A stretch of 64,000 bases of DNA from Ptychodera flava (taxonomy: Eukaryota; Hemichordata; Enteropneusta; Ptychoderidae), in contig NC_091940.1 in NCBI RefSeq assembly GCF_041260155.1, positions 3,320,001 through 3,384,000 on the forward strand, written 5' to 3'. The translations under genes and the position numbers were made by a program. Below the pieces are notes generated by a model that searched no databases, was not told the DNA's origin, and saw only the letters and a list, made by a program, of their open reading frames with translations. Position 1 is the stretch's first letter, and the number at the start of each line of letters is the position of its first letter. Shown here one piece after another: positions 18,786 to 41,068 of the stretch.

Positions 18786-18985
18786 CTGTGATCTGCGACC
18801 TAACCCTAACCCTAACCCTAACCCCTAACGCTAACTAACCCTAAGTTATGCCGTTACAATTTTTCTGTCCCTTGGCCTAACCTCCAGGGTTGAGAGCGAA
18901 GTAAGGCTTTTTACGAGAGAAAACCTAACCCCTAACCCTAACCCTAACCCCTACCCTAACCCTAACCCTAACCCCTAACCCTAAC
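18786..18985. repeat. Interstitial telomeric (CCCTAA)n arrays
   Basis: Two short arrays of CCCTAA and CCCCTAA units (about 18790-18845 and 18925-18985) flank a unique spacer of about 80 bases. They lie between the inverted ends of the TIR element, so they are part of it and do not mark a chromosome end. TTAGGG is the ancestral animal telomere repeat. Confidence 0.9.
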
Positions 18986-19049
18986 CGCAGATCGCAGTTT
19001 TAAAAACTCGCATGTCGCATGTCGTGACCGGTCTTCCATACATTTCTGC

Positions 19050-23029: not shown

Positions 23030-23753
23030 TTTTATTCTACGTCTAAATTTGCTGCAGATAGTACTATCTATACCTGCCAAACATCAATTTAGATTAATTT
23101 TCTTTTTCAAACGAAATTTACCTTTCAATGAGTCAGCAAAAATTAAATGGCGGAAATGCCTATTTATTGATTTGCGGGACTGACACGGTTCTACGGCGAT
23201 TTCAATATTTTCCCCGAGGCAGTTGACGGCCGTGCAGTTAGTACTGCTCGGAGTGGTCAAGCCAAGTTCATGACAGAACGGATGTATGTTGTCGAGAATT
23301 AGGCAACAAATGTGCTTGGTAAAAGGTTGGCAATACCGACCACTAAAATTGCCGAGGACTAGAAAGTCGGACGGCGGGAATTGGCGACAGGTGTATCTGA
23401 TAAAGAGCTGACATTTTTCCGGACATAAAGACCGTGAATAAGGATGTCAGGCGGCCGGGAGCAGGGTACAGGGATGTCCGGTAAAAGACTAACAATCTTC
23501 GGTACCACAAGTACGGGTATTTGAATGTCGGATGGCGGCGATAGGACGACAGGTGTGCTAATTAAAGGGGTTTACAAATTCCCGCACTTAAAGTGCGACA
23601 ATTGGAATTGCATTGAATGGGCTGTCGGGGACAGGTATGCCGCGAAAGAGGTTGAAAATTTGCCGTGCAAAAAGCACGAGGATTGGTATCGCTGTCAAAC
23701 AGACGGCAGACCACAGGTGTGCCCGGAAAGGGTCGACATTTTCCGTACCTAAG
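23030..23753. repeat. Host higher-order tandem array, left part
   Basis: Units of about 80-84 bases (markers acaggtgt at about 23386, 23465, 23549, 23630, 23712) carry gacaatttccgtacctaaagtgcg and a g..ttg.aatg..ggcgg block. The segment 23030-23385 is a different sub-block, matched at 41920-42345. The array continues to the right of the Polinton. Confidence 0.75.
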
Positions 23754-23759
23754 AATATG

Positions 23760-23983
23760 AGTAGTAAAGTAAACGTGGGCAACTGGGATGAAGTAAGAAT
23801 TTTACACCCATTTTATTCATTTATCTACATGAAGCGAAGGAAAAATTAACCATCCATGTAACTAAAGTATAACCCTGACCTATATACGAACTCACTCACG
23901 CGCAGCAGTGCATTGTCCTGAACTAAGCGGGGAAATTCCCTGCTGAGTCATTCACATTCCAAATGGAACTTGCGCAATACAGT
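23760..23983 (+). repeat. Polinton left terminal inverted repeat
   Basis: It matches the reverse complement of 40838-41062, from AGTAGTAAAG at the tip to CTTGCGCAATAC at the inner edge, with a few substitutions and one indel of about 16 bases next to ACGCGCA. Confidence 0.9.
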
Positions 23984-24407
23984 AGCTATGACTCACCCCC
24001 ACTGAGCAAAACAGAACGACATTCTATTCTCTCTCTCATTTGTTAGATAGATTCTGACTGAGCCGTATCGGAGCCGTACCGGAGCTCTTACAAAGGCAAC
24101 CTTCGCTTACGGTTCCGGAGCTGATTCTCGTTTCTGGATGTGAATTTTATCTGCTGGCTGTTCCCTTTTCACTATGTTTGGAGTCGTCGGAACGAGATTT
24201 TCCCCTACCGGAACCATAGGGATGTTGCGCAATACCCCTATCAGGACGCAGCAGGAACTTTCCGGTAGGGAATTTCGCAATACCGCTTTCGCAATACCGG
24301 ACTTCAGTTGCTTAGTAACTTGTGATGTCATGTTCAATGTCTGTCATTCTACAGTTTTCAGAAAAATTTTCTGTGGAATTTTTTCTGAACGACTCTAGTT
24401 AACTTGT

Positions 24408-25468
24408 TCACCCGATAGATAAAATTTTAGTAATTTCCTCTGAACTTAAAATATGTCGGAAGACCATTACTTCAAACAAAATGAGACGTTTCAGATGAAT
24501 GGTACTGATATCTAAAGTGTTCACTCTTTTATCTCTACGTACAAATGTAGTTCCTAAGTCGTTCTCTATTCTATTCCCACCAACAAAACATTCAATACTC
24601 ATTTCCCCTCCCCGATCTTTATCAATACTTATGATAATATCACAAGTTGTTCTGTTATCTGTTTTCATAGCATAATATCCAACCAAATCGTCAAACTCGT
24701 CTCCAGTAGCTAACTTTACACATCTAATGAGAACTGTACCATGTTGAAGTATTTTCATATTATCAGTCATCTGTTGATTTACAGTCTGTAAAGTTAGAAC
24801 AGCTGCCTCATCACCGACACTTTTAAGACCAGTTTCTTTAAAGTTGTGTCCCAAAATAATCTTACTGGAACTCCGCTAGCTGTATACGAGCAATAATTCT
24901 CCCCCTCGTTTATCCACCTTCTTAGTGTATTATCTGCCTTCATTATTGTATTAAGAGGACTAATTTTAAGGTGAATCGGTATACCAAGAAGTGCAATGTA
25001 TGGATTTGTAGGAGTAAGCCAACTACGAAAATCTAACAATTTATATTTGTTTACATTGCTATCAAAATAAATCACATTCGGAGTTCCTGGTGGTTCAGCA
25101 ACACCTCCTGCAATTTCACTATCCAATATATCTAAGATGTTACGCGGCACATTATAAGGCATGAATTTCTGACTATCCCCATCCCATGTCAGAGCAAAAG
25201 GAGTAGGATCATTCGAAGCCTTTGTGGCGTCAATTACAGTTTCATCAATGTCTTTAAGTTCGGAAAATTCTACAGCATGTTCGTGGGGTGGCGCCGCGGC
25301 ATTGGCTAAAACGAAATATTTTTCGCGGTCTTTATAACGAAGGACGTAATCCTTATTATGATTAGCAGCCATCTTAGTATTATTGTTAACTTTAACATCA
25401 CTCAGATCTTCAAGCTCAAGATTTTGCATACGAATTGTACCTAGACCGAAGCCACTTGGATCAGACAT
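24408..25468 (-). CDS. Polinton structural protein(s) of unknown function, possibly lectin-like end
   Basis: This minus-strand coding region starts at MSDPSGFGLGTIR (ATG at 25468). The N-terminal part is unrecognised. The C-terminal part ends IHLKRLILFEVMVFRHILSS then EEITKI, which resembles the last strand of LamG/concanavalin-type domains (...I..L.LFNR.LS..E...). Such folds occur in virion surface and fibre proteins, so an attachment role is conceivable, by inference only. Reading frames overlap within the region, so it may be one gene or two. It diverges from the plus-strand gene at 25528, leaving about 60 bases for shared promoters. Confidence 0.55.
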
Positions 25469-25527
25469 ACTCCGTAGGGACCTATATACAGTGAAAATTA
25501 AAATAATACCTTGTAATATACACAACC

Positions 25528-25881
25528 ATGGCTTCAGCTATAGGAATGACAGTTCTCGGTGCTGTATTAAATGCAACGGCATTCACAGGAGGAAATATTA
25601 TCGGACAAAAGCTTTCCGGTAATGGTGACGCTCTTATTGAAGAAAAGGTCCGACATGATAAAGCATTAGAAAAATTTGAACATGATCGCAACGTCTGGTC
25701 AGAAAAAAGATTACTCCAGGCTGACTGGGAAAGAGAAAATCAAGCAAAGGATGCACATGCTGCGGCAGAATTAAGAGATACAGATGCAGAAATCCTGGAA
25801 GAAGCAGAAGCGGTGCAAAGCAACTCTACGTCAGTCCGAAGGGGCAGTTCAATTCTCAGATTATTATCAACCCAGTCCTGA
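25528..25881 (+). CDS. Polinton small protein: glycine-rich hydrophobic N-terminus plus charged helix
   Basis: 117 residues from an ATG at 25528. Residues 1-31 (MASAIGMTVLGAVLNATAFT...) form a glycine-spaced hydrophobic segment, followed by a long charged, probably coiled-coil stretch (EEKVRHDKALEKFEHDRNVW). Proteins of this shape recur in Polintons and adintoviruses, where some are compared with membrane-active or minor core proteins. I infer a virion-associated membrane role but see no diagnostic motif. The frame is intact. Confidence 0.6.
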   Translation: MASAIGMTVLGAVLNATAFTGGNIIGQKLSGNGDALIEEKVRHDKALEKFEHDRNVWSEKRLLQADWERENQAKDAHAAAELRDTDAEILEEAEAVQSNSTSVRRGSSILRLLSTQS

Positions 25882-26085
25882 GCAAAAGAAATATGAGATG
25901 ATCTATATTGCTGGAGGATTGGTCGTGGGATGGTTTATCTTCCGATAGGGTTACACCGGTAGGGCCCGCTTCGGGACTACAATAATTCAATACAAAAGCT
26001 AATTGGCCAGTTATTGAAATCGATCATGTTCCCATCCTGATCTGTTATCCAGATACGAATGAATTCATGTAATCTCCCCCTTTTC

Positions 26086-26705
26086 TCAATGGCATAGAAA
26101 TTGCTCCGTTTTAAAATCGTAAGTAACCTTTTCACTTATTTCTCTCGTATCCCGGATGGGAAGTATTTGTAAACAGTTCGATACTTTCCCCTGTATGTAT
26201 CCTCCGGAGGCACCCGAACCAAATGAAACATAATTTCCAGTAACATCGACTACATCTGAATGAACTATATATTTAGTGACTGTTAAGAAATCCACTTTCT
26301 TCGGACTCATAGTACTTTTATAACTGGGTTGTTCTCAGGTTTATCTGAAAAGCCGACGACGTTGGCGAAGCTACCTGTGGCATTGAAATAGACTTTAATA
26401 TCTTTAGCCAAAGTTAGATAAACATGGTTTGTCGGCAGATGTTTTTCAAAATTAATTTTTTGCTTCAACCCGATTGCTTTGTTTAACGTATCGATATTGT
26501 AGTTACCTGGACGTATTGATTTAGTCTTCTTCGGTTGGTCACCTTCTTGATATTTTATTACATTATTCGTCGATGTTATGTTATGCCATGAATTATATAG
26601 TCCACACTCTAGCAGTCTTATCTTCGTAAACTGCGTCGTGTCAATGCAAGGGTAAAAATTAACAGTGACTGGTTCACCTGTTTGGCTTTCAATCCAAATG
26701 ATCAT
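26086..26705 (-). CDS. Conserved Polinton protein(s), LLECGLYNSWHN type
   Basis: The minus-strand start at 26705 gives MIIWIESQTG. It contains FTKIRLLECGLYNSWHNIT and RPGNYNIDTLNKAIG, a pattern (R-L-L-x-C-x-L-Y-N-S-W followed by P-G-x-Y-x-I-D-T-L) that recurs in uncharacterised invertebrate proteins near Polinton genes. A second frame starts at MSPKKVDFLTV and overlaps the first by four bases (ATGA), as in coupled genes. The function is unknown; a minor capsid or vertex role is possible but unproven. Confidence 0.55.
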
Positions 26706-26774
26706 TGTTGTACGTTGTATATATTACTAAGTATAAGTGTTCGATGAATATTATTATTATTCCGAAGGTGCCCA

Positions 26775-27005
26775 TTACACAGTATAAGGTTCTGCAGGAA
26801 TAATATTTTTCTGTTCAAGGAGATCTTTGGTCGCAACCGCGGCAGCAGTCGCACCGCCTAATTTTGCCAATCGAGTTAAATTTGGTCGACTTGGATCACC
26901 AACCTCTATTTTCAGAAATTTGCTGGAGATCATAAGATATCCCATCGCAAGTCCTGCGATTACAATACCATCGTACATTGTGTTTACAACTGTTTTAATA
27001 TCCAT
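26775..27005 (-). CDS. Small Polinton membrane protein, AGLAMGY type
   Basis: 76 residues from MDIKTVVNTMYDG. A hydrophobic segment (IVIAGLAMGYLMI) lies at about residues 14-27, then a basic loop and a second weakly hydrophobic helix (GGATAAAVATKDLL), ending IIPAEPYTV. Similar short proteins with AMGY and an IIP tail recur in Polintons; their function is unknown. The frame is intact. Confidence 0.6.
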   Translation of the reverse strand: MDIKTVVNTMYDGIVIAGLAMGYLMISSKFLKIEVGDPSRPNLTRLAKLGGATAAAVATKDLLEQKNIIPAEPYTV

Positions 27006-27056
27006 GATTGCTGACTAGTATATAAAATAAAAAATAAAAATAAAAAATATGGGGAG

Positions 27057-27332
27057 TTAATCCATCTCATACAATGTAGAGGAGCTGGGAACACCCCCCT
27101 CCCCCTCCCCCTCCCCTCCCCTCGGAACCCCTGTCGGAACTGTTCCGGAGGGAGCTGCTACGGGCTCTGTTTTTTTCGCTTTCTGAAGCGGTTCCCGCGG
27201 TTTCCGGGGAGGACAGGGGGTATGCCGAGCACGCCCCCAATATAGCCCTAATGCAGTCAATGAAACTCCCACAATTCCTAAAACAAGATAACATTTATTA
27301 TACCAGCGTGAGCTATCACACTGTTCTTTCAT
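27057..27332 (-). CDS. Small single-pass membrane protein with proline/glycine-rich tail
   Basis: 91 residues. A transmembrane helix (YLVLGIVGVSLTALGLYW, about residues 15-32) is followed by a basic, proline-rich tail and a GGEGEGEGG stretch. Its start overlaps the stop of the upstream gene by four bases (27329-27332), suggesting coupled expression. No family is recognised. Confidence 0.5.
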   Translation of the reverse strand: MKEQCDSSRWYNKCYLVLGIVGVSLTALGLYWGRARHTPCPPRKPREPLQKAKKTEPVAAPSGTVPTGVPRGGEGEGEGGVPSSSTLYEMD

Positions 27333-27574
27333 TGTAGGCGTAGGTCTGCTACCGCATCACTATCATTCCCCTCCATTGCTTTTAGTTTCTTCTCCCTGTT
27401 TTGCCTGTTCCATTCCGCTAGTCGCTTGCCCGCAGCAACTCTCCCTGGATTCTTCGTCGGTAACGTCATTTTCTCTATGTTGCGCTGTGTCGGAGGTGCC
27501 GGTGTTGGTGGTAGGATCGTCCCTGACGGAGTCCCTGGCGGAGCCGTTTGCTGAGTCGGTGAAGTTGAATCCAT
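27329..27574 (-). CDS. Small basic Polinton protein, RVAAGKRLAEWN type
   Basis: 81 residues. The N-terminal half is proline/threonine-rich and low in complexity. The C-terminal half has PGRVAAGKRLAEWNRQNREK, a basic helical motif found in short Polinton proteins of other invertebrates. A core or nucleic-acid-binding role would suit the charge, by inference. It overlaps the next minus-strand gene by ATGA. Confidence 0.55.
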   Translation of the reverse strand: MDSTSPTQQTAPPGTPSGTILPPTPAPPTQRNIEKMTLPTKNPGRVAAGKRLAEWNRQNREKKLKAMEGNDSDAVADLRLQ

Positions 27575-27599
27575 TTATTTCAGGTACTATATTAAACCC

Positions 27600-27925
27600 G
27601 ATTTTTTAAAATTTAAATGTTTACCCGTAATTAAACCGGTGGAAATTAGAGCAATCAGGGGCCCCCACGTGTAAGCTATCCGTCCTGATAATCGTTTTAT
27701 TTCACTGTTTAGAATAAAATCCTTTTTAAGATCAGTGGCATAGTTATCTCGATCATCGATTGGAACTACTGACTTATTGCACGGGCTCCTAGATCTATGA
27801 AACTTTGAGTGATGGTATCACTTATAAGAGAACTGTATTTCGCTTCATAGACTTTAAAGGCTCGTGTTATGAATTCATCTTTCCACGTTTCCACTTCTCT
27901 AACTGTAACTCCTTACCAAAAAATA
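27600..27925 (-). pseudogene. Remnant of a small Polinton membrane protein gene
   Basis: The minus strand shows coding-like text (REVETWKDEFITRAFKVYEA and, nearer the end, RIAYTWGPLIALISTGLITG with a clear membrane segment). It is broken. It heads the minus-strand block of small structural genes. No family is assigned. Confidence 0.45.
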
Positions 27926-28233
27926 ACTTACTTTGACCACTTGCGATGACACAGAGTATTTTTTCACGTTTGTCTCTATTATGGATTGAGCGTCCGAAGG
28001 CACCGAAGGCGCCGAAGCCCCTTCGGAATGCGCTGCCATATTTGCCGCTGCTGAGACTTTATTAAATTCTCCATTGTTTGCAGTATGTTATCTATTCTTA
28101 CTAAAAAATAAAAAATTCGTTAAACCTGAATCCGAAATAAAGTATTAACATAGTCTGGAATGTTAGTACCCCTAACGTTCCGATAGGGATTCTGACAGGG
28201 ATTCCGGGAAAATTCTCCTCCATTTAAATCTAT

Positions 28234-29652
28234 ATGTATATAGAAACACGAATAATGAGTACAGACTTATTCCCAGTTGCTTTTCAATTGAATAAGACGA
28301 GCGTACCGACAGTACAGCATGCTGATATTCCTTCCAAACCGGACGGGGGAATAAAACCTATTCTCATGGACTTAGAAATATATGTAACGCCGACAGAAAA
28401 ATTTACTTTTCATCCTCGGGATGTGTTCAAAGATAACGTAATCACTCATCGATCAGCTAAAGAAAGTAATGTCTGGCTGGGCAGCCCAAAGATGAAATAC
28501 TGGGACCAGCAACTGAATTTCGCTGTATGGTGTAGCACTACTGGTTGTGGTATATCATTCGCCCATCTCTTTGATAAGAAATTTCCGCCCCAAATACGAT
28601 CATTCTGCCGTTTCCATGTATACTTTACAATACGTCGTATCCTTCACGAAATGGGCGTTGCACTTCCAGACGATACCCCCACCTTCAAAGCGGGCGACAA
28701 TCCGTACAATCTCGTCCAATATGAACTTCTATGTACTGAATTTGGAAATATAAGCCCAACGAAGTCCGACTTTCGATATCGAAAAGGTCAAAATAAAGGT
28801 CTTGGTTATGGATATGAATATTACACTAATCGTGGCCCTGTTCGACAGCCAAAAGCGATATACAACGGTCGGGACTTTTTCCTCTCCGCCGACGGAGGTG
28901 TTTTCTATACACATACAATTTTTGGAAAGAAAAAAACACGTACTGTCCGACAAAGACCGACCGCACTACTATTTCTTCCGAAATGATGGATCGGAGGGAC
29001 AATATAATAGTTTCATTCCTCTGACAGGAGACTCGGGACTAACAAAGGCCGGTCTCGCCGCCTCAATGAAAGCCTTGAAGCCTACGTATATTGCATACTC
29101 GGCGCACAAGCAAATATTCGTAGTACCATAGTAGGCGATACTGGCAGTGCAGAGCAAGTCCGAAAAGAATTCGGCGTTCTCCTCGAAGATGAAATTCGTA
29201 ATACCGACAAAGTAATCAGTTATCGGCGATACCAAGACACAATAATGAATACTGGTGTCAAACTTGATATGGCAGTTTCGCCCAATTTACTTCTCTTACC
29301 GTCTGAGATGGTCATCCTTTCGGGCCCGGCAATCTCAGGTTATAATAATGAACTGCAATACGCAACAGAATCTATGTCCTTCGGGGTGAACGGTGATATA
29401 AACACGGAAGTTCGAGAAAGTGCTATACATGAGATGGAAGGAGGAGGGGAGGGGGGAGATCCTGTGAAGTGGCAGGACGAGCCCGGAGAGTCACCACCAC
29501 CTCACAATGACACGACTCGGGGGCCTCCCCTCCCCTCCCCAGAACGGGCAGCATCTGCAGACCCTATTCACGAATATGGTAAAATTGGTTTGTTATCTTT
29601 AGCAATATTCATTACTATTGTAGGTACTGGAATAAAGTCACTAACTATATAG
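28234..29652 (+). CDS. Conserved Polinton protein, QLNFAVWC type, with C-terminal membrane anchor (broken)
   Basis: The likely start is MSTDLFPVAFQ at 28255. A conserved block reads YWDQQLNFAVWCSTTGCGIS, then RFHVYFTIRRIL and NPYNLVQYELLCTEFG, a pattern I associate with a widespread uncharacterised Polinton protein of about 450-500 residues. The distal part carries SGYNNELQYATESMSFGVN, an acidic proline/glycine-rich linker and a C-terminal hydrophobic helix (IGLLSLAIFITIVGTGI). It is broken at a small number of places. The role is unknown; conservation and a membrane tail suggest a virion component. Confidence 0.6.
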
Positions 29653-29757
29653 TTCATTCAGATGCTGTCGATGTGACTGGGTTTCATCTAACTCGAACCA
29701 GTAACTTAAAAGAACTAGAAGAGATTCATTAATTTACAGTATATAGATCCAGAGGAA

Positions 29758-30362
29758 ATGTCAATATACGTAACCCCACCATTCAACATGATTATAACTG
29801 GACCGACATATTCTGGCAAAACAGAATTTATGTTGGACCTCCTCACCGGTCCGTACTTAAGGAAATTCGAATATGTGATATTCATTTGCCCAACATTCAT
29901 GAATAATAAAGCGTATAATAGAAGATTCATTTCACCGATGATAATGTGTTTATATTTCCAGTCGGACTCGATGCAGTGGATGATACATTAACCTACGTGC
30001 ATAAAGAATGGGCTGGAACGAACACTTTAATAATCCTCGATGACTGCGCCTCGTCCAAAGATATGAAGAAGCGCAGTAACGTTTTAGTCCAACTTGGTTT
30101 CAGCGCAAGACATGACGGATTATCTGTCTGGGTTCTGACTCAACAATATACTAGTATTAGTAAACCATTTAGGGAAAACATACAGATGTTAGTACTATTT
30201 TACACACCGAACAAGATAGACAACAAAACTATTATAAAAGAATATGGAATGGAGGTGTCAGAACGGGAAGCCGTGGGCCTAATCAAGCAATTGAAAAGTA
30301 GGCCATTCAGTAAACTAGTATTTCGTTTACGGAATCCGTACGACATAAAATTATTCGTATAA
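29758..30362 (+). CDS. FtsK/HerA-type genome-packaging ATPase (broken)
   Basis: Walker A is IITGPTYSGKTEF near the start, and Walker B is TNTLIILDDCAS. LSVWVLTQQYTSISKPFREN then follows, fitting the sensor region of the A32-like packaging ATPases of Polintons and related viruses. About 200 residues is the family's usual size. The protein would drive DNA into capsids. It is directly followed by the integrase gene on the same strand. It is broken. Confidence 0.85.
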
Positions 30363-30372
30363 TATAGCAATT

Positions 30373-31477
30373 ATGGAAGCTGAAGCCGAAGGTACTCTTA
30401 GAGAATTATATTACAACCCGAAAACTGGTTTTGGAGGTGTGCAAAAATTGTATGACGCAGCACGGGCCAGCGGACTGAAAGTGACCAAGAAAGAGGTGCA
30501 GGAGTGGTTAAAAACTCAGCTAACTATAATCTACATAAACCGGTACCTCGTTCTCATGCTACGGGCGGCCGGCGCGTTTTTGTAACATCGATAGACTCTC
30601 AATGGCAAGCGGATCTCGTGGAATTCCCTCCCCCGTTCGCAAAAGAGAACCGTAACATTCGATACATGCTAACAGTAATCGATGTACTCAGTAAATACGC
30701 ATGGGCCAGGCCGATACAGTCAAAAACGGCTGATGATACGTTACAGGCGCTACAAGACGTGATTAAGAAATCTGGGAGAAGGCCCGACAAACTTCAGACA
30801 GATGAGGGGCGGGAATTTACTAATCGAAAAATGCAGGGGTGGTTGGAGGAGGTGGGAATTCACTGGTTTCACACCTACAGTGATAAAAAAGCTAGCGTCG
30901 TTGAACGTTTTAATCGGACTCTTAAGACGATGATGTGGAAATACTTCACATATAAACAGACACGTGAATGGCTTTCTATTCTACCAGAACTTCTTGAGAA
31001 TTACAATAACACCGTTCACGGAAGTATCAAAATGAAACCCAGGGACGTAACAGAGGAGAACGATTGGCAGGCATTTTATACACTATTCGGTCCTGAGTTG
31101 GCAGCCGGGGAGTTAACCCTGAATTCAAGCCGGAGAGAACGGGTTCGAATTACAAAATACAAGACCACTTTAAGAAAGGGTATTTACCAAATTGGACAGA
31201 GGAGATTTTCGTGGTTTCAAAAGTTGTGTACGCAGCTGGACTAGGAACGCCACCAGTTTACAAAATAAAAGATCTGAATGGAGAGGAAATACTTGGCACT
31301 TTCTACTCCGATGAACTTCAGAGCGCACCTTCAGAACGCGACGAGCTGTACAGAGTAGAACGAATTTTGAAGACGAAAAAAATTAGAGGAAAGAAATATT
31401 ATCTGATAAAATGGAAAGGTTATCCAGAAAGTTTCAATAGTTGGGAGCCAGAGGAAAATGTTATTAGAACTTCGTAA
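30373..31477 (+). CDS. RVE-family integrase with C-terminal chromodomain (broken)
   Basis: A short N-terminal helical part (LRELYYNPKTGFGGVQKLYD) precedes the DDE core: WQADLVEFPPP (first D), LTVIDVLSKYAWARPI, LQTDEGREFTN (second D) and KASVVERFNRTLKTMM (E). The end encodes a chromodomain (YRVERILKTKKIRGKKYYLI and KWKGYPESFNSWEPEENV). Chromodomain integrases are known in Polintons and in Ty3/Gypsy chromoviruses, where they steer insertion to marked chromatin. The gene lies downstream of the packaging ATPase with about 10 bases between them. It is broken. Confidence 0.9.
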
Positions 31478-31549
31478 GTTCCTGTCCATGGTACTGTCAA
31501 GTACTACGTAAGTTCCTGTCCATGGTACTTGTCAAGTACTACGTAAGTA

Positions 31550-32739
31550 CTAACGTAAGTATTTACGAAAGTTATTCAATAAGTACCATGGAAAAAGTCT
31601 TAATTTCTTGAAAGCCGAAAGTGTCAGTTTACCACCCCACTTCCACCCCCCACCTGGCCAAGTATTTATCATGTACTGTCGTAAGTAATGTTCACTTACT
31701 GCATCTTTTTCGGCCGTATGTGGATGAGGTGGTAACTCGGTTCCTGAACATATTAAGTTTGCAAGATCTTCAAAACGACTTCTCATGTTACCACAGTCCG
31801 TTCTTTCGAGTCCCCCTTTTTCAGCTTTATATATAAGTTCTGGTTGAAGTATAATGTACACAACTGACATGAGCCATAGACAAGTAACTTCAAAGTCCCT
31901 TTCAGAACCGTAGGGTTTCATAATGTCAAGTGCTCGTAGGTCAAACGAAGCATTATAAGCACACACAGATTCACAAGCGTTAAGAAGTTTGTGTAGGTTC
32001 TTTAGTGAGACTCGAGGTTGTTCTAGTTGTTCTTGACCAGGTGGGAAGTACGCTTTTTCAAGTTCCTCCTCCTTGAAACCGTCTATTAAAAATCCCTGGC
32101 TGCCGCCGCTCCATGCAATTCCAAAGTCAAAAGCTCGTGGATATTCTACTGGTCCGACTGTCTCGGTATCAATTGTTGGATTAAGTATATTCTTGAGAAC
32201 GAGGGGGGTAAGAGCGTTCCGAATTACCAAACATGGAAGTCTGTAGTCGTGGCAAATTTCTAAGAAAGTCTGTTTGAACTTGTTGTGAATCTCTTCTAGT
32301 TCTTCTAAGGCGGCTATTTCGTACGACCTGGCTCGAGTCAACACATTCCGCCTGCAATAATCCCAAGGCATATCTTTGAATATGATAATGAAACTGGGTA
32401 AATGGTCAAATGCTCTAGAAACAATCTTTTTTCTTCCGTTGCCACGCCCCGGATTCGAGAAAAAGTCAGATGTTGAATTATGGAAGAGTCACAAATAATG
32501 TATTGTTCTGAAGGGAGGGAGATCCTCCTCCTCCCAGCCTGACATTGTAAACTAAGAGTATGTTCTATAAACTGATTCTGAAAATCGGCAATCGAAACGT
32601 GGGTGACACGCCCATTATAAAAGTCGGCAATGTTGCTGGAAAAACTAGTGTCAAATTCTGGTACGTGATACGGATCCAAATTTATTGCATCGTAACTCTT
32701 ACCACTTCCAGTTGGTCCATTTATGAATATGTATGACAT
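31550..32739 (-). CDS. Deoxynucleoside-kinase-like module followed by DEDDh exonuclease (broken)
   Basis: The upstream part starts MSYIFINGPTGSGKSYDAIN (P-loop GPTGSGKS) and has a YIICDSSIIQHLTFSR segment. Further on, CRRNVLTRARSYE and LEELEEIHNKFKQTFLE recall the RxRxxE lid and helix of deoxynucleoside or thymidylate kinases. The downstream part has exonuclease motifs in order: IDTETVG (Exo I, D and E), AYNASFDLRAL (Exo II, N..FD) and HTAEKDAVSEHYL (Exo III, H and D), the DEDDh/DnaQ set. An exonuclease beside a protein-primed polymerase could proofread or trim, and a kinase could supply dNTPs; both are inference. It is broken. Confidence 0.65.
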
Positions 32740-32805
32740 TTTAGGATACTATATCATAGAAAAATTTTTTTAAATTTTTTTTATTAAGATATATACGATA
32801 AGACA

Positions 32806-33559
32806 ATGACAATCCTTTCTATTTCAACTGCAATAAAAATACTTGAAACCGGAGAAGAGAATATTCAAATCAGTGACGGCAAACTCATATTTGGTGAATC
32901 TTTGGTAGATCCTATTATATATGTAGACAGTGAGCTAGAAGTGGTTTTCAACATCGGACCTAAATATGGATCCAACGATCCTGCTACATGCGATGGGGTG
33001 TGTGTCCGTTGGCAACCGAGTCTTCAAAAGTTTACTGATTTAATAATATTCCGTACCCTAGGTGAAAGTTTCGATGCAAGCACTGCTAAAAGTTATGCTG
33101 CAAGCCTGGCCGCTCACTCCAAGAATAATTCCTGCGGATTTTACAATCCATCTAAAGTGTATCAGAAGCGAGGGAGCGGGGCGCAGCCAGTGGCGTATTT
33201 TAAATTTCAGTTTAAAAGAGGGAGGGAGGGAGAATCACGATTTCGCTACATGTATTGATATGGTTCAAGAAATTGACTGCGGTTTTAAAACAGTGAGTCC
33301 ATTGCCAGTCCGAGAAAATCCTGTTATTGTACCTCGTAATATCCGAAAAGGTAGTAAGATAGAATTCTTAGCATTTAAACCGCGCTTAAGTAAGCGTGCT
33401 CTTTCTTTCACTGTTGAGAGATTAATATTTTGTGCTGCGCCTAATAAACCAGAAATTCAAGATGCGGAAGAACTAGTCGACTTAGAAAGATTAGGCGAGA
33501 TATATAAACAAATAAATGCTGCCAAAAATATTATAGTGGATTTTGATGACCTATCATAG
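32806..33559 (+). CDS. Polinton protein of unknown function, candidate minor capsid (broken)
   Basis: It begins MTILSISTAIKILETGEEN with many beta-prone stretches (DPIIYVDSELEVVFNIGP) and ends in ALSFTVERLIFCAAPNKPEI and an IIVDFDDLS tail. About 240 residues with beta-rich composition is about right for a single-jelly-roll penton-like protein, but I see no diagnostic motif. It lies between the kinase/exonuclease module and the polymerase. It is broken. Confidence 0.4.
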
Positions 33560-33615
33560 AATAATTATTTTTTCATTTTAAAAATTTTAGGATAGTATAT
33601 ATCATAAAGATTATT

Positions 33616-36600
33616 ATGGCCCGTCGATTACATACAGCATTCAAGGGAGCAGTTTTACGAAAAGAATTTCCTGAAGTCAAGCGAGTCAAGGATATCGGGG
33701 AGCTGGTGGATATTGAAGGTATGGTTAAAGAACGAAAGATGTACTCTGTTTATACTGAAATGGAAGTCAAATTATCGGATCCGAAAACTGGTAATACACA
33801 ACCACGTTCATTGTATGTTAAATTAAATGATACATACACAAAAGATGTAAGAGGATCGGGATCGGATGTGGGGCAACAATTAATAGATCGCTACGATCGT
33901 ATGCTTGATACAATTGAAAATGTTGAGGGTTCTGGTCTCGTTCTCGAGGAGATACTTAATTTTGAAGTAATTCTAGTAGAAGTTTTACTCGGGGCTGGCC
34001 CGGAACGGATTCAACTTCCCAGATGGTTAAAAAATAAGCATTGTGTTAGCGATCTGGTGCTACCTTCGGGCAGCGAGAACTGTTTTCAATATGCCATCGT
34101 AGCAAGTTTAAAGTTGGCCGACCCCGAGTTTCGTGAAAAGAAATGTGGTCAGGTAAGGAGAAAATGGAATACGTACGCCCCATTTATGGCTGACTACTGT
34201 TGGGAAGGTATTCCCTTTCCTACGCCCGCCGATCTGACTGTATTCAGGCGCTTCGAGCAGCAAAATCCGGGCACGCAACTTCAAGTGTTTCAGATCTACG
34301 AAAATGATCCCGCTCCCCGTCCGACATAACTGTGTTATATAGTGCCCATTCCGAAGGTGAAGCCGATAGGAATCAAATAGCAAATATCTTACTGATAGTT
34401 GGCGAAGACGGCGGCCGTTCTCACTTCGTACCAATTACTGCGGAAAATCGCCTTCGTAATTCTCGTACTAATCGAAAGAATGAGCGCAGACGGAAGTGTA
34501 TTGTATGGTTTGTAAAAGAGGTTTTAAGTCAACAGAAGAATTAGAAAAACATCAGGTGTACTGTGGAACAGACACTGCCCAGCCAGATTTTCCTAAGGAA
34601 GTGTGTCAATTTGAAGGACATCGGAAGAAGGTTCCTTCTCCCTACGTCGTCTATGCAGATACTGAGGCAATTATTGAGAAGGGGACCGGCCGGCACATTC
34701 CAATTTGTCTTTCGTATGTTATGGTGGAACGGGGGTGGGGAGGATCGCGGGGACCTTCGGAACGAGGCCCGGGCCGACCCACTGTTTATGGTAAAAGAAC
34801 ATTCACAGGTCTCTCCTGTGTTACAGACTTTCTAAAGGATATGAAGAACGGGCCGAGTATTATTCTAAATCGTATTATTGGAAAATAATACCGATGAGGG
34901 ATCCTTCTAATTACCGGCGCGACGGATGTGATCCAGTCTGTATTGCATGTGGAGAGCCGGCAGGATACCGAGTAGTGAAGGAGGAGGCGACCTTCTATTG
35001 CGAAGGATGCCGGCCGTCGAGAACCATTCCTATCTACTTTCACAACCTCAAGGGATACGATGGTTCTTTTATTTTGAAAGAATTACATGAAATCGTTACC
35101 GAAGGAGATGATGGGGGTTCCGGACCAGAGCCTAAAATCATAGCTAAGACGAGCAATGGAGGAATTATGGGTCTCTCGAAAACATTTATTTTTCACGCCT
35201 CAATTGTTGTTGCCGGAGGAAGAGGGAGATAAAGAGACGTTTCTTTTCTATAAAGTTTATGGACAGTGCTCAGCTGATGATGGGTCATTGGCGAAGTTGG
35301 CAAAAACTGTGCCGGAGGATGGGTGGACGGCGGCCCCACTTTCGTACCCGGACATTCAAAGAGCGAAAGGTTTCTTCCCTACGAATATTTAGACTCGGTT
35401 GACAGACTGGGAGAGAACCAGCTCCCGGAGAGGGGGGAATTTTATAGCGAATTGACGGAAGAGGGGATTTCAGAGTCGATTACGAACATGCATTAAGAGT
35501 ATGGGACGAAGTTGAGTGTAAGACGATTCGTGATTATATGGAATTCTATTGTGAGACGGATGTTCTCCTTCTTGCTAATATATTCGAAAATTTTCGGACA
35601 CATGTTTAGAAGCATATAAGTTAGATCCGGCCCATTACATGTCAGCGCCTGGCTTGACATGGGATGCTATGTTACTTTACACGGGTAATAAGTTTAAACT
35701 CATTCAAGATGCTGAGCAGATGACTTTCGTACAACGGGGAATACGAGGAGGTATCAGCCAGTGTAATATTCATTATTTACAGACAAATCATCCTGCTTAC
35801 GCTGGCGCGAATTACGATCCAGAGAAGCCGGTGACCGAAATAAAATATCTCGATGCAAACAATCTCTACGGCTGGGCAATGAGTCAGGCAATGCCTACGG
35901 GCGGACTTCATTGGATGACGATGGAAGAGTGGGAGGAATGGGCCGCCGGCGGAGCGGGGGCCCGAGCTGGCGGAGCTGGCGGAGCGTGGGGACCTGGTTC
36001 CACCTTTCCACCAAGTTTTCTAGAAGTAGACTTAGAATACCCACCGAATTACATGAAGAACACAGCGATTTGCCATTAGCACCGCATCACTATGAATTTC
36101 GAGGCAGGGCGGTCGACTGATTACAAGTGTGATGGATAGAGAGAGATACGTCTTACACTACAAGTTGCTGGAATTCTATCTTCGGATGGGAATGAGATTG
36201 AAAAAGATTTATCGGGTGCTTGCTTTCGATGAAGCTCCATGTCTCGCGAAATATATTGACTTTAACACTAAAATGAGGGCAAAGGGGAGGACAGATTTGA
36301 AAGAATTTCTATAAGCTGATGAATAATGCAATGTTCGGTAAGACAATAGAGGATGTTCGAAAGTACAGAGACTTTAAATTTGTTTCGGACTGGAACGGTA
36401 CGGATAGTGGCCGTAAAAAGATTCAGAAGTATAATCCAAGATGAAACATATAACTTTCATAACTTCCGAAGAGGATGGCGATTCCTGCGACAGTGCCCTA
36501 CTGGAACTGAAAACGGATGAGCATAGATATGTAAAACCAGTTTTCATCGGCGCCGCAGTACTGGAACTTTCTAAGCTGCTTATGTATGAGACGCATTACA

Positions 36601-37169
36601 ATTACTTTCGGGTCAAGTTCCCTGGAATACGATTAGCCTACATGGATACTGACAGTTTGTTTACAGTGTACCGATCCCGGACCCGGACGTAACTTTCAAT
36701 GATATAGTCCGAGAAGATGTTGAAAAGAATGGTGAGAAGTCTATATATGATACTAGTGGGATGAGCGGCCCGCCCCAACTTTCCGAAGATTAATAAAAAA
36801 GTGATAGGTAAATTTAAAGATGAGTTGAATGGTGAACCTATTCTTGATTTTGTCGGCATACGCTCGAAAGTGTATGCTTTTCGAACTCCAACTTCGGAGA
36901 CGAAAAAAAATAAAGGGGTGAAAGATGTTTGTGTTAGAAAACATTTAAACTTTGAAGATTATAAAGATCTATTTGAAACTGGGAAGAAGCCGGAGCCGGC
37001 ACAATTTGTACAGTTTGTACGGAAAAAGGCTGGAGAAATCCGTAGTGAAAAGCGCAGTAAAATCATGATGGCGCCAAATGATATCAAACGTGTGCAGCTA
37101 TACAATCCAGACACAGGCGAATGGCTGGCAGAAACATGGCCGATAGGACGGACGACGGGTCATGGTTAA
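33616..37169 (+). CDS. Protein-primed DNA polymerase B (broken)
   Basis: The N-terminal region has [19 protein letters not shown] then [12 protein letters not shown], a conserved block of Polinton polymerases. Exonuclease-domain marks are [10 protein letters not shown] (Exo I) and [15 protein letters not shown] (Exo II). Polymerase marks are [20 protein letters not shown] (motif A), [14 protein letters not shown] (motif B) and [12 protein letters not shown] (motif C, YxDTDS). The 3' part has [11 protein letters not shown] and a thumb region. Total length is typical. The enzyme copies linear DNA from a protein primer. This gene carries most of the element's breaks. Its stop shares a TTAA with the convergent capsid gene. 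Confidence 0.92.
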
Positions 37170-38428
37170 TATTGTAAAGACATTAATCTACTATTTTCAA
37201 TAGAGACCAGGGCATCACTGATAACATAAATGTGGGCAAATATATTATCATTGTGAGCGTCATCGCCACTCCACGCGGTATCTTTCTTCAGGATCTCAAG
37301 TTGAATTCCGTCCTTTGTGTTCATTACTTTTAAACCATTTCCATGAAACTCAATATCTTTAAAGCTACGCAGATCGATAAATAGACAGAATTTATTCTTC
37401 AAATAATCGGCGTCATCTATATCAATTTCACACCAATCTTTATCTTCAGCAAAATACCGTCGTGTTTCTTTCCAAAATTGTCTTGGTATCATCTTCTGAG
37501 CGTACACTTTATTTGCAATGCCTTCGATTGATACAGACACAGATTCAATGGATGGGTTAAAGAAAAGTTCACTGTTCATTTCTGCCTGATTCTGATTTTT
37601 AGTGAAGAGTATAGCGATACCTCTAATGCTACGTCGTGGTACATTTATATTTTCATTGATAACCGTGTCCGATTCTTTGAATGGGATTGTTCTAAAATAA
37701 TGTATATGCTCGTAAAGGTAACTTTTTCCACCGTTGTAATAACCAGCAGTTGACCTCGCGAGATCGAGGTCAGAAATTGTCTCGTATTCCATTTGAATGT
37801 TTTTTAATTTATAATTGGTTGTAACAACCTGATTACTGACAAGTAATTGGGGGGCGGGTGCCAACGTAATTTCCCATTCAATATGACTCCCTAACGCTTT
37901 TGGATATGCAACTCCATGACCTGTTATTAGGGGGTGAGTGAGACGAATAGCATATTTTGTTTTATATGTGTCGAAAAGTAACTTATCGCCCACGACGTTT
38001 TGATCTGCATCGGTAGAACCGCTTCTCAATTTTCTTAGATTTTCGTTCTGAATTCCGTACAGTGTCATGTTAGTTCTCTCCTTTTTATGTTTGAAGAGAT
38101 CGCGATAACATTCAATAAGGTTATATTTATTCAAATCGAAAAGTGTCTGACCCTCAAATGTGAGTTTCATACGCTCCACCAAATTTTTTGCAACATTTTG
38201 TACTACTCGGTTATATTCATCTCCCATTACTTCGAGATCAAAAACCAGGTCGAAAGTATCTGGAACTAAGAGTACTCCGCTTTCTAACTTCGGACATCGT
38301 ATGATAAGTGTCTGGCCTGGATCTGCCTCACTTGGATTATGAGCAATCACATGATGAGTTCTTTCTGACTTCGTTCCATTCGGTATTCGGTTGGTGAAAG
38401 TCGGTGATAATGTTCTATCGTACCCCAT
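37166..38428 (-). CDS. Major capsid protein, double-jelly-roll hexon-like
   Basis: 420 residues from MGYDRTLSPTFTNRIPN; the longer upstream frame lacks support. It contains VAKNLVERMKLTFEGQTLFD, LNKYNLIECYRDLFKHKKER, TNMTLYGIQNEN and RLTHPLITGHGVAYPKAL, a set I recognise from capsid proteins of invertebrate Polintons and adintovirus-like elements. The length and beta-rich composition suit a double jelly-roll. The frame is intact and its promoter side faces the 38470 gene. It is convergent with the polymerase. Confidence 0.85.
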   Translation of the reverse strand: MGYDRTLSPTFTNRIPNGTKSERTHHVIAHNPSEADPGQTLIIRCPKLESGVLLVPDTFDLVFDLEVMGDEYNRVVQNVAKNLVERMKLTFEGQTLFDLNKYNLIECYRDLFKHKKERTNMTLYGIQNENLRKLRSGSTDADQNVVGDKLLFDTYKTKYAIRLTHPLITGHGVAYPKALGSHIEWEITLAPAPQLLVSNQVVTTNYKLKNIQMEYETISDLDLARSTAGYYNGGKSYLYEHIHYFRTIPFKESDTVINENINVPRRSIRGIAILFTKNQNQAEMNSELFFNPSIESVSVSIEGIANKVYAQKMIPRQFWKETRRYFAEDKDWCEIDIDDADYLKNKFCLFIDLRSFKDIEFHGNGLKVMNTKDGIQLEILKKDTAWSGDDAHNDNIFAHIYVISDALVSIENSRLMSLQY

Positions 38429-38469
38429 TTTCGTGTAATGTATATAGTAGAAGAAAAAAAGAAAATTAA

Positions 38470-38820
38470 TCACATCTTTACGTAAATATTTCCGTCTGAC
38501 TGAAAGATAAATCGATTGCCTGTGTCGCGAATCAATCGAAGAACCCAATATTCTTGGAGATGATGAGCCTCTTGGTCATCCTCAGTATCCTGGAATACAG
38601 CTATGAATTCTAGTCGCTTAAAGAAGTTAGTCTTTTGACATTCCTTCACGAAAGCTAATATGTTATGATAAAGATTATCATCTTTGAGTCGGACACCTGG
38701 ATTTGCTCGAAGGATATGTCGATTTACTCGTCGGAGTTTGCACCATTCCAATTCGACAGAGAAACCAAACAGGTCTTTATTTTTAGAAAGAAACTTTGCA
38801 ATATTCTTTTCACCAAACAT
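38470..38820 (-). CDS. Small Polinton protein, unknown function
   Basis: 116 residues from MFGEKNIAKFLSKNKDLFGF, mixed alpha/beta composition, intact. It sits between the capsid gene and the large coiled-coil protein on the same strand, with gaps of about 40 and 25 bases. It has no catalytic motif; specifically, no H-D/E-C protease triad is visible. Confidence 0.5.
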   Translation of the reverse strand: MFGEKNIAKFLSKNKDLFGFSVELEWCKLRRVNRHILRANPGVRLKDDNLYHNILAFVKECQKTNFFKRLEFIAVFQDTEDDQEAHHLQEYWVLRLIRDTGNRFIFQSDGNIYVKM

Positions 38821-38846
38821 GTTGATGCCGTAGGGAGTGTGATATA

Positions 38847-40139
38847 TTAATACATAATTTTATTTATAATGACTAATGTTAATCCAGTCAAAGATATCCA
38901 TAGCTGTTCTCCAACAAATCCGACCACCGATCCTGCTGTTTTTAATAGAAAACTGACAAGGGAGCCGATTAAACCTGGTATTGCAGCAGCACTTTTTGCA
39001 GCCAATGTTTTTAACCATTCGCCAAATTGCTTTACAATTTCTTTCGCTTTTGTATATACTTTGGGCGGACCTGAACCAGACCCGCCAGTTCCTGCTCCTC
39101 CTCCCCCTGCTCCCGCTCCTCCTCCTCCTCCTCTAGTCACAGCCAGGGCAATTGTTGATATTGTCATTCCAAGGGCAGTCAGTATTGCAGCGATTGTAAT
39201 ACCATTTCGTTTAAATAATTCTGTCAGCTTCAGTCTCAGTGATAATTCTGGATCAGAAATTACATCACGAAGAGACCTAGTCGTAGCCAGACTTTCACGT
39301 GCCTCACTGATCTTACCATGTTCGTATTCAATTCGATTGTCAACTTTAGCTTCTCTTGTTATGAGTTCAGCTAGTAGTTTCTTGGCTTTTTCTTTTCCTT
39401 GGGTGTGATCTTCAGGAATTTCCTTTAACTGTTTTTCAGCTTCTCTTTTCAATAGCCTTATTTTAACTTTTTCGTTGTTAAGCTCGCCAAGACGCATATT
39501 CGCAATCCTTAATTCATCATTAATAGCTCTATATTCTGGGTTTAGATTGTTCCATTGTTCGATTTTATTTTCAAAAGCTTGTATTTTATCTGCATTACCA
39601 GAAGCATCTTGTCGTAAGAATGTCAGTTTATCTTTGTATATACCCATGTCTTTTGGTGTCATCTTTTCAGCCGGTATTTTATCGTTTTCCACATCTAAAG
39701 AATGCAATTCACGACTCACATATTCGGGCTCTGCGCTTGAGTGATATTCGACTCCACTCCATGTGTATACTTTATTTATAAATTCAGGTCCTCCTTTCCT
39801 CCCCCTTAATGTGGATTTCTCTAAAAATCTACTTCCTTTATCCATTGTAACTCTGATGTCTTTATAATACAGTTCACCACCTTCAATCTTAGCATACAAA
39901 ATCAATTCGGTTCGTGCATCCGGATTAGTAATCTTATATTTGTCTAAGAGTCCTTCAGCCATATTTTCTGTAAGTTTTCTTCTCTGTTTAATTAAAATAT
40001 CCACCTGTGGGCTATCCACTGAAGGATCTGGGTTTGCAAAAGTATCATCGGTAAAAGATGTTTCAGCAGTAACATCATCATCATTCAAATTTGCATCATC
40101 GAAATCCTGGAGTGGTATATCTTCTCCTCCTTCTGCCAT
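38847..40139 (-). CDS. Large Polinton coiled-coil protein with C-terminal hydrophobic region
   Basis: 430 residues, intact. There is an acidic N-terminus (MAEGGEDIPLQDFDDANLND), a middle YTWSGVEYHSSAEPEYVSRE block, a long charged coiled coil (about residues 190-300), then RDVISDPELSLRLKLTELFK and a hydrophobic helix (GITIAAILTALGMTISTIAL). A poly-glycine linker (GGGGGAGAGGGGAG) leads to an amphipathic/hydrophobic end (IPGLIGSLVSFLLKTAGSVV). Proteins with this SDPELSLR...GITIA...poly-G or poly-P layout recur in coral and other invertebrate Polintons. The function is unknown; a membrane or scaffold role is inferred. Confidence 0.7.
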   Translation of the reverse strand: MAEGGEDIPLQDFDDANLNDDDVTAETSFTDDTFANPDPSVDSPQVDILIKQRRKLTENMAEGLLDKYKITNPDARTELILYAKIEGGELYYKDIRVTMDKGSRFLEKSTLRGRKGGPEFINKVYTWSGVEYHSSAEPEYVSRELHSLDVENDKIPAEKMTPKDMGIYKDKLTFLRQDASGNADKIQAFENKIEQWNNLNPEYRAINDELRIANMRLGELNNEKVKIRLLKREAEKQLKEIPEDHTQGKEKAKKLLAELITREAKVDNRIEYEHGKISEARESLATTRSLRDVISDPELSLRLKLTELFKRNGITIAAILTALGMTISTIALAVTRGGGGGAGAGGGGAGTGGSGSGPPKVYTKAKEIVKQFGEWLKTLAAKSAAAIPGLIGSLVSFLLKTAGSVVGFVGEQLWISLTGLTLVIINKIMY

Positions 40140-40230
40140 ATTGTATTTCTATATTACTACAATTATTTTTTTATCCCCCCTTACATATACAGTAAAAAAT
40201 GCACATCTCAGTTGTTGAAAGCGTTGAACA

Positions 40231-40647
40231 ATGGCCGACTATATAGAAAGAACAAGTGCTGCATATCGACGAAGTTATAAATTAATGGGTCGAATTGATA
40301 TGGCTCTTAATATTACTAAAGGAATTCTTGTAAGCTCTGCTGTAATAGCAGCAATTCCAACAGTTCCGGTACTGTTAGCCTTAACTCCTATACCTGGCGT
40401 CGTTATTGATGTAATACAAGGAAAAACGGGTGTATCAAAGAGGCGAGAGAAATATAAACATTATTATGTTCAATATAAACAGCTGCTTACACAAATACAA
40501 GAAAAAGGCGCAACAACAGAGGCTCCGGGGTCAGAACTTATTCAGGACATATTTCATCAGGCGCTAGAAATACAAAAACAAGAAGGATTTAGTCCGCCGC
40601 TGGAGCGATATCTACGATATTATGGATTGAATGGATATGAAAGTTAG
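40231..40647 (+). CDS. Small Polinton membrane protein
   Basis: 138 residues from MADYIERTSAAYRRSYKLMG. A hydrophobic stretch (GILVSSAVIAAIPTVPVLLA) lies at about residues 30-52, followed by a charged helical part and an ERYLRYYGLNGYES end. The frame is intact. It diverges from the coiled-coil gene, with about 90 bases between starts. No family is recognised. Confidence 0.5.
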   Translation: MADYIERTSAAYRRSYKLMGRIDMALNITKGILVSSAVIAAIPTVPVLLALTPIPGVVIDVIQGKTGVSKRREKYKHYYVQYKQLLTQIQEKGATTEAPGSELIQDIFHQALEIQKQEGFSPPLERYLRYYGLNGYES

Positions 40648-40837
40648 TTAACTTCAGCTAGACTCCGCGACTGACTGACAACGGGGGTAAAAGTCCCTTT
40701 ATATAGGCTAGTTTGATGGTGATGACTCACACGGAATTTCCCGTACATGTTTATACATGTTGTGTATTTAGGTCAGACAGAACAAGTTTCTACATGTCAC
40801 GGATCACTACCAGCATCAGTGGTACCCAGTGAGTGTA

Positions 40838-41062
40838 TTGCGCAAGTCCAGGTCTGACTCAGCAGGGAATTTCCCCGCTTAGTTCAGGACAATGCACTGC
40901 TGCGTCAAACCCCTGTTGCGCGTGCGTGAGTTCGTATATAGGTCAGGGTTATACTTTAGTTACATGGATGGTTAATTTTTCCTTCGCTTCATGTAGATAA
41001 ATGAATAAAATGGGGTGTAAAATTCTTATTTTGTCCCAGTTGTCCACCTTTACTTTACTACT
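40838..41062 (-). repeat. Polinton right terminal inverted repeat
   Basis: Inverted counterpart of 23760-23983, ending CTTTACTACT next to the AATATG duplication at 41063-41068. It carries about 16 extra bases relative to the left copy. Confidence 0.9.
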
Positions 41063-41068
41063 AATATG

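What the first reader, a model, noticed from the sequence alone, without database searches (positions are those of the whole stretch)
31550..32739. Polinton carrying a kinase-like module joined to a DEDDh exonuclease
Polintons normally encode polymerase B, integrase, ATPase, protease and capsid proteins. Here a minus-strand region between the integrase and a structural gene shows a P-loop with a deoxynucleoside-kinase-like lid region, followed by all three DnaQ/DEDDh motifs (DTE, NxxFD, HxxxxD). The polymerase already has its own exonuclease domain, so a second exonuclease plus a nucleotide-salvage enzyme would form an accessory replication module that I do not know as standard in this family.
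Basis: partly seen in the sequence, partly recalled or inferred. Interest (0 to 1): 0.72.

Follow-up and report, generated by a model that had tools for sequence, protein, structure and literature searches.

The report
Polinton gene joining kinase and exonuclease
A virus-like transposon in this genome carries one extra, now broken gene that appears to join a nucleoside-phosphorylating enzyme to a DNA/RNA-trimming enzyme, a combination that may have helped the element copy itself but is known here from a single damaged copy.

Summary
Window 23760-41062 is a Polinton/Maverick with inverted repeats, (AGT)2 ends and a perfect 6-bp target duplication. Beside its integrase lies one minus-strand gene (31550-32739), split by a frame change near 32.4 kb. 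Searched apart, its two frames match consecutive parts of a deoxynucleoside-kinase (dNK) HMM (positions 9-118 and 133-180 of 213) and rank first and second of 304 window frames. The trimmed lid piece lists PF01712 alone in Pfam, below cut-off (E 0.17). The frame of the lid then carries the D-E, D, H-D residues of DEDDh exonucleases in order, the only one of 304 frames to do so; PHROGs names a phage DNA-polymerase family over motifs I-II (E 1.6e-4). It reads as one dNK-DEDDh fusion gene. Weak points: no curated cut-off is reached, the DEDDh profile ranks the frame only third, structure prediction was off, and two PolB patterns found no Polinton in the viral collection, so conservation of the pair is untested. 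Likely role (inferred): accessory nucleotide-supply and end-processing enzyme. New variant of a known kind.

The parts
23760..41062 (.). Whole Polinton/Maverick element, 17,303 bp, with (AGT)2 ends
   Evidence: inverted arms; end motif read; (AGT)2 is the commonest vertebrate Maverick end (PMC8097293 section 7)
23754..23759 (+). 6-bp target-site duplication AATATG, left
41063..41068 (+). 6-bp target-site duplication AATATG, right
23760..23950 (+). left terminal inverted repeat (at least)
   Evidence: arms I1, I3, I5
40855..41062 (-). right terminal inverted repeat (at least)
   Evidence: arms I1, I3, I5
29719..30359 (+). packaging ATPase in two overlapping frames (29719-29988, 29946-30359)
   Evidence: Pox_A32 E 9.7e-7 and 7.5e-7
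30504..31474 (+). integrase (rve) and chromodomain in two overlapping frames
   Evidence: rve E 4.3e-16, Chromo E 3.2e-14
32341..32739 (-). Kinase piece: N-terminal part of a dNK-like domain
   Evidence: dNK HMM positions 9-118, its frame rank 1 of 304, E 0.0017; AAA_28 E 0.0012 below cut-off; phrog_2107 thymidylate kinase E 0.046
32695..32718 (-). P-loop GPTGSGKS
   Evidence: translation; aligned
32656..32658 (-). Glu aligned with the dNK catalytic Glu (EP motif; here EF)
   Evidence: alignment; role of the residue recalled
32482..32490 (-). DSS in place of the DRS motif of many dNKs
   Evidence: alignments
31550..32488 (-). Second open frame: dNK lid and C-terminus followed without a stop by the DEDDh domain (ORF with ATG 31550-32371)
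32219..32389 (-). dNK lid and C-terminal segment, includes RARSYE at 32318-32335
   Evidence: dNK HMM 129-183, 133-180; PF01712 120-169, E 0.17; 12 of 14 PDB matches are NDUFA10, best E 0.059
32162..32170 (-). DEDDh motif I (DTE)
31940..31957 (-). DEDDh motif II (YNASFD)
31703..31720 (-). DEDDh motif III (HTAEKD)
34496..37166 (+). Protein-primed PolB in six open pieces over three frames; exonuclease motifs by eye YADTE, NLKGYDG, YEYLD
   Evidence: DNA_pol_B_2 E 0.013 and 0.038, below cut-off; PolB patterns hit

Best explanation
This is an accessory gene of a Polinton that encoded a single fusion protein of about 390 residues: an N-terminal deoxynucleoside kinase-like domain followed directly by a C-terminal DEDDh (DnaQ/RNase T-type) 3'-5' exonuclease domain. 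Shown by sequence: the element and its borders, the gene's place next to the integrase gene, the colinear dNK match of the two pieces, the shared frame of lid and exonuclease, and the full DEDDh residue set. Inferred: that the two frames were once one gene; that the kinase raised precursor supply for protein-primed replication; and that the exonuclease trimmed or recycled nucleic acid (3' ends, displaced strands, or DNA/RNA) during that replication. In this copy the gene no longer reads in one frame, like the polymerase, ATPase and integrase genes around it.
For: Borders with 6-bp duplication enclose the gene; 72 bases separate it from the chromodomain ORF and 66 from the next ORF. dNK HMM of 93 sequences: the two frames rank 1 and 2 of 304 (E 0.0017 and 0.3), kinase piece 0 of 5000 and lid piece 1 of 5000 shuffles as good, at adjoining profile positions; a 44-sequence HMM gives the same order. 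A thymidylate-kinase HMM ranks them 33rd and 79th. Lid piece: PF01712 is the only Pfam family listed for the trimmed piece (E 0.17), and 12 of 14 PDB matches are NDUFA10 orthologues, one family, which one search shows to be a dNK relative. DEDDh: phrog_17 DNA polymerase E 1.6e-4 over motifs I-II; hhalign 29.8 against a best of 20.6 in 60 shuffles; HMM 0 of 3000 shuffles as good; motif order and spacing.
Against: No curated cut-off is reached for either domain. The longer lid pieces list no Pfam family even at E 10. A single E near 0.01 among 304 frames is not rare: the thymidylate-kinase HMM gives an unrelated frame E 0.014. hhalign of the lid piece against the bacterial dNK profile gives 17.6, below the best of 60 shuffles (20.5), and the kinase piece's hhalign match covers the P-loop only (17 columns). 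A bacterial-only dNK HMM ranks the frames 42nd and 27th, a viral-only one 1st and 5th. The DEDDh HMM ranks the frame 3rd of 304 (E 0.38), DnaQ-only 5th, ExoX-only 3rd; Orn-, SbcB- and RNase T-only HMMs do not list it. The DRS arginine is serine. PDB search of the exonuclease piece gives nothing meaningful. One copy only; no relatives found.
Confidence: 0.6

Rival explanations
1. The dNK-like domain is a non-catalytic scaffold or nucleotide sensor (as NDUFA10 is in complex I, recalled), and the working enzyme is the DEDDh exonuclease, perhaps acting on host nucleic acid or RNA rather than in replication. (Shares its anatomy with the best explanation; odds are not exclusive. Lowered from 0.2 to 0.17 on recheck, because the missing arginine turned out to be missing in many family members too.)
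For: DRS arginine replaced; the PDB relative nearest to the lid piece is NDUFA10; all five DEDDh residues are kept.
Against: P-loop, the aligned catalytic Glu and the lid RxRxxE are kept; 13 of 15 bacterial PF01712 sequences of alignment A1 also lack the arginine.
Confidence: 0.17
2. The kinase is a (d)NMP kinase rather than a nucleoside kinase.
For: PHROGs names thymidylate kinase families for the first piece (E 0.046 and 0.27); hhalign of the kinase piece against the thymidylate-kinase profile is also above its shuffles (25.5 against 18.6, 11 P-loop columns).
Against: A thymidylate-kinase HMM of 17 sequences ranks the two frames 33rd and 79th of 304; the lid RxRxxE and the PF01712 and NDUFA10 matches point to dNK.
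Confidence: 0.15
3. The gene is a host gene captured or inserted by chance in this one element, with no role for the element.
For: No second element with it could be found, but two PolB patterns found no Polinton to look in.
Against: It lies tightly between element genes and inside intact borders; no intron is seen apart from the one frame change.
Confidence: 0.1
4. One or both motif sets are chance.
For: E-values are weak for each domain alone; the DEDDh HMM ranks two unrelated frames higher, and the thymidylate-kinase HMM gives an unrelated frame E 0.014.
Against: Two pieces independently top 304 frames at adjoining dNK positions; the loose three-motif pattern occurs in 24 of 200,000 shuffles and one of 304 frames.
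Confidence: 0.08

Closest known systems
Deoxynucleoside kinase family (PF01712: dCK, dGK, insect dNK, phage and bacterial dNKs; NDUFA10 as a relative)
   Same: P-loop, aligned catalytic Glu, lid RxRxxE, colinear profile match
   Different: DSS for DRS; C-terminal exonuclease; 0 of 98 viral dNK loci fetched here carry a DEDDh match in the dNK frame or in another frame of the locus
DEDDh exonucleases (PF00929: DnaQ, RNase T, ExoX, Orn)
   Same: D-E, D, H-D residues in order and spacing
   Different: profile similarity weak; nearest named family is a phage DNA polymerase; joined behind a kinase
Polintons/Mavericks and adintoviruses
   Same: TIRs, 6-bp duplication, (AGT)2 ends, rve-chromodomain integrase, A32-type ATPase, PolB pieces
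   Different: a dNK-exonuclease gene is not among the core genes listed for vertebrate Mavericks, whose accessory ORFs flank the modules (PMC8097293 section 7); here it sits between integrase and polymerase
Bidnavirus segments with thymidine-kinase-like (Tkoid) genes
   Same: a nucleotide-supply kinase in a virus with adintovirus-type PolB (PMC11071296 passage)
   Different: the passage mentions no exonuclease fusion; different genome type

Membership tests
[quoted passage not shown]
Polinton/Maverick | retroviral-type integrase with chromodomain | tested here: met
   (E 4.3e-16, 3.2e-14)
Polinton/Maverick | packaging ATPase | tested here: met
   Pox_A32 above cut-off in both pieces
Polinton/Maverick | protein-primed PolB | tested here: inconclusive
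   pieces only: DNA_pol_B_2 E 0.013 and 0.038, below cut-off, colinear; motifs by eye; patterns were written from this window's own motifs
Polinton/Maverick | protease and double-jelly-roll capsid protein | tested here: inconclusive
   460-aa ORF 37166-38548 gave no Pfam family and only weak PHROGs matches; protease not located
dNK (PF01712) | match above the curated cut-off of 27 bits | tested here: not met
   12.1 bits for the trimmed lid piece; kinase piece not listed
dNK (PF01712) | P-loop and lid RxRxxE at dNK profile positions | tested here: met
dNK (PF01712) | DRS/ERS motif | tested here: not met
   DSS. Arg is nearly invariant in A2 but absent in 13 of 15 bacterial members of A1, so it does not define the whole family
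DEDDh exonuclease (PF00929) | five catalytic residues D, E, D, H, D in three motifs | tested here: met
   motif definition recalled
DEDDh exonuclease (PF00929) | match above the curated cut-off | tested here: not met
   no Pfam family listed for the piece
DEDDh exonuclease (PF00929) | RNase H-like fold | not testable with these tools
   structure prediction switched off

The most novel reading that the evidence does not exclude
A self-contained nucleic-acid recycler: the DEDDh domain digests host or displaced DNA to dNMPs and the fused kinase phosphorylates those products on the spot, feeding the element's own protein-primed polymerase. No paper listed by the searches named in Tried and rejected was seen to describe such a bifunctional enzyme.
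Probability: 0.1. Interest if true: 0.7.

Novelty: new variant of a known kind. Interest (0 to 1): 0.45.

Why it matters
[quoted passage not shown] A nucleoside kinase joined to a second exonuclease would show a small virus-like element carrying a nucleotide-supply enzyme of the kind known from larger DNA viruses, and would suggest replication where host precursors are short. It is testable by a survey of intact Polintons.

Tried and rejected
Thymidylate kinase as the family of the first piece: a 17-sequence HMM ranks the two frames 33rd and 79th of 304. AAA_28 (PF13521): it matched 37 of 40 bacterial genomes at E <= 0.001, often over short P-loop stretches, so its E 0.0012 says little. DnaQ, Orn, SbcB, RNase T or ExoX as the particular DEDDh branch: no single-branch HMM put the frame first. 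Host-fragment reading: not favoured because of borders and spacing. Relatives: the search for related loci with the exonuclease piece, kinase piece, an integrase piece and a PolB piece in viral contigs, and with the exonuclease piece in genome contigs, gave none; two PolB DNA patterns gave 0 stretches although each hits the window once. tblastn in the phage records gave no match for the exonuclease piece or a PolB piece and one at E 9 for the kinase piece.

Rows dropped: DEDDh profile 41 of 43 loci L082-L124 (L089 and L120, open on both strands, left out); dNK 16 of 18 loci (L140, L141 not used); TMK 17 of 25 loci; AAA_28 6 of 30 loci; alignment A1 used 15 of the 16 dNKs. The 98 viral loci (28, 70 new, the latter cut at the best 80 of 98 found) include places fetched twice; 77 distinct strings entered the 93-sequence HMM, some still from one place. 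DEDDh branch HMMs were small (24, 5, 2, 3, 3 sequences). Shuffles that hmmsearch did not score count as worse than observed: scored were 2533, 2372 and 1421 of 3000 and 4067 and 3934 of 5000.

The statement that no paper on this fusion was seen rests on the searches, mostly as listings. One paper holds both 'Polinton' and 'deoxynucleoside kinase' (PMC4602308); it was seen as a listing and not read.

Full report
What is there. The window region 23760-41062 is a Polinton/Maverick. Inverted arms lie at 23743-23950 and 40855-41079. Reading the ends shows AGTAGT from 23760 on the plus strand and from 41062 on the minus strand, and outside them the same six bases AATATG on both sides. PMC8097293 section 7 (that section read) gives (AGT)2 as the commonest end motif of vertebrate Mavericks, a mean length of 16.9 kb, and accessory ORFs flanking two core modules. 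Inside are an rve integrase (E 4.3e-16) with chromodomain (E 3.2e-14) and an A32-like packaging ATPase (E 7.5e-7), and PolB in six open pieces. Integrase-chromodomain, ATPase and PolB are each spread over more than one frame, so this copy is damaged. Capsid and protease genes were not identified by Pfam.

The gene of the finding. On the minus strand, 31550-32739 holds two open frames. The upstream one (32341-32739, ATG at 32739) begins MSYIFINGPTGSGKS. The downstream one is open from 32488 to 31553 and runs without a stop from a lid-like segment into the exonuclease motifs. 72 bases lie between it and the chromodomain ORF (convergent) and 66 between the upstream frame's ATG and the next plus-strand ORF (divergent).

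Kinase part. Pfam gives AAA_28 at E 0.0012, below its cut-off, a family that matched 37 of 40 bacterial genomes, so it shows a P-loop and little more. PHROGs gives a thymidylate kinase family at E 0.046 over residues 3-107. I therefore built dNK profiles from fetched loci: 16 bacterial and 28, later 98, viral loci (77 distinct strings). With the 44-sequence HMM the kinase piece aligns to positions 6-115 and the lid piece to 129-183; 1 of 3000 and 0 of 3000 shuffles score as well. With the 93-sequence HMM they align to 9-118 and 133-180 of 213; 0 and 1 of 5000 shuffles score as well, the one at 14.5 bits against 8.1 observed, and among 304 window frames of 60 residues or more the two frames rank first (E 0.0017) and second (E 0.3). 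The pieces were never joined, so the adjoining positions are independent of each other. The exonuclease piece, as a cross-control, does not match the dNK HMM better than its shuffles (1768 of 5000 as good). In Pfam the trimmed 75-residue lid piece lists one family, PF01712 dNK, positions 120-169, E 0.17, while the 89-residue piece lists none; in the PDB 12 of its 14 matches are NDUFA10 orthologues, best E 0.059, and one search shows that NDUFA10 chains match a bacterial dNK (E down to 5.8e-8).

Results against the kinase reading. A bacterial-only dNK HMM ranks the frames 42nd and 27th and a viral-only one 1st and 5th; in the same test a thymidylate-kinase HMM gives an unrelated frame E 0.014, so single E-values near 0.01 must not be leaned on. 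hhalign of the kinase piece against the bacterial dNK profile exceeds its 60 shuffles (28.9 against 23.5) but over 17 P-loop columns only; against the thymidylate-kinase profile it also exceeds them (25.5 against 18.6, 11 columns); the lid piece does not (17.6 against 20.5). The aligned catalytic Glu and the lid RxRxxE are kept; the DRS arginine is serine. That arginine is nearly invariant in alignment A2 but absent in 13 of 15 bacterial members of A1. That these residues are catalytic in dNKs is recalled knowledge.

Exonuclease part. DTE, YNASFD and HTAEKD stand at residues 10, 81 and 160 of the 215-residue piece, the five residues of a DEDDh enzyme (definition recalled). A loose pattern of the three motifs occurs in 24 of 200,000 shuffles of the piece and in this frame alone of 304; a stricter one, written with the sequence in view, in none of the shuffles, while it hits 88 of 2485 frames from fetched loci, which are rich in DnaQ. 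hhalign against a 41-sequence DEDDh profile gives 29.8 over motif II, best of 60 shuffles 20.6; the HMM gives 5.7 bits, 0 of 3000 shuffles as good. PHROGs gives phrog_17 DNA polymerase at E 3.5e-4 to 1.6e-4 across motifs I-II and NCBIfam a Pol III epsilon subfamily at E 0.2 at motif II, far below its cut-off. But the DEDDh HMM ranks the frame only third of 304 (E 0.38), single-branch HMMs 5th, 3rd or not at all, and Pfam lists nothing. So the DEDDh call rests mainly on the motif set and PHROGs. It does not look like a copy of PolB's own exonuclease, whose third motif by eye is YxxxD in the frame 35281-35493.

Is the pair known? Of 98 viral dNK loci fetched, 0 have a DEDDh match in the dNK frame (E <= 0.01) and 0 in any of 2120 frames of 80 residues or more in those loci (E <= 1e-3); this bears on dNKs of other viruses only. 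In print: passages of PMC11071296 mention thymidine-kinase-like genes on bidnavirus segments; passages of PMC11071308 and PMC12721341 describe other polymerase fusions in Polinton relatives; word finds in PMC8097293, PMC8363768, PMC10120064 and PMC12220804 gave 0 occurrences of 'kinase' in the main text. The searches named in Tried and rejected listed no paper seen to treat a dNK-exonuclease fusion in Polintons; PMC4602308 was listed for 'Polinton' with 'deoxynucleoside kinase' and not read.

Mechanism. Shown: anatomy and residues. Inferred: that the two frames were one gene; that the kinase supplied precursors, as nucleoside kinases of larger DNA viruses are held to do (recalled); that the exonuclease trimmed or recycled nucleic acid. 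Products of a DEDDh enzyme are nucleoside monophosphates (recalled), which a nucleoside kinase does not take, so direct hand-over would need a dNMP kinase; this is the bold reading, at probability 0.1.

Verdict. A new variant (accessory fusion gene) of a known kind of element, known from one damaged copy. On recheck only the scaffold rival's odds were changed (0.2 to 0.17), because of the A1 count above.

Noticed in passing
window 31465-31575: Between the convergent integrase and kinase-exonuclease genes lies a 34-nt tandem repeat (31469-31548); the stretch folds better than all of 200 shuffles (z -3.74), possibly a shared 3' end signal.
   Followed up: partly
window 45913-50394: A BEL/Pao-type retrotransposon on the minus strand (Peptidase_A17 E 4.5e-22, reverse transcriptase, DUF1758, integrase H2C2), in several ORFs.
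   Followed up: partly
window 7135-7850 and 21431-22586: Two arrays of a 150-bp satellite-like unit that look related by eye.
   Followed up: no
window 18799-18986: Short stretches of CCTAAC telomere-like repeats outside the element.
   Followed up: no
window 26237-26281 and 29636-29680: A 45-nt inverted repeat pair (91%) inside the Polinton.
   Followed up: no
window 32806-33559: Unidentified plus-strand gene in two frames between the kinase-exonuclease gene and the polymerase region; no Pfam or PHROGs family of note.
   Followed up: no
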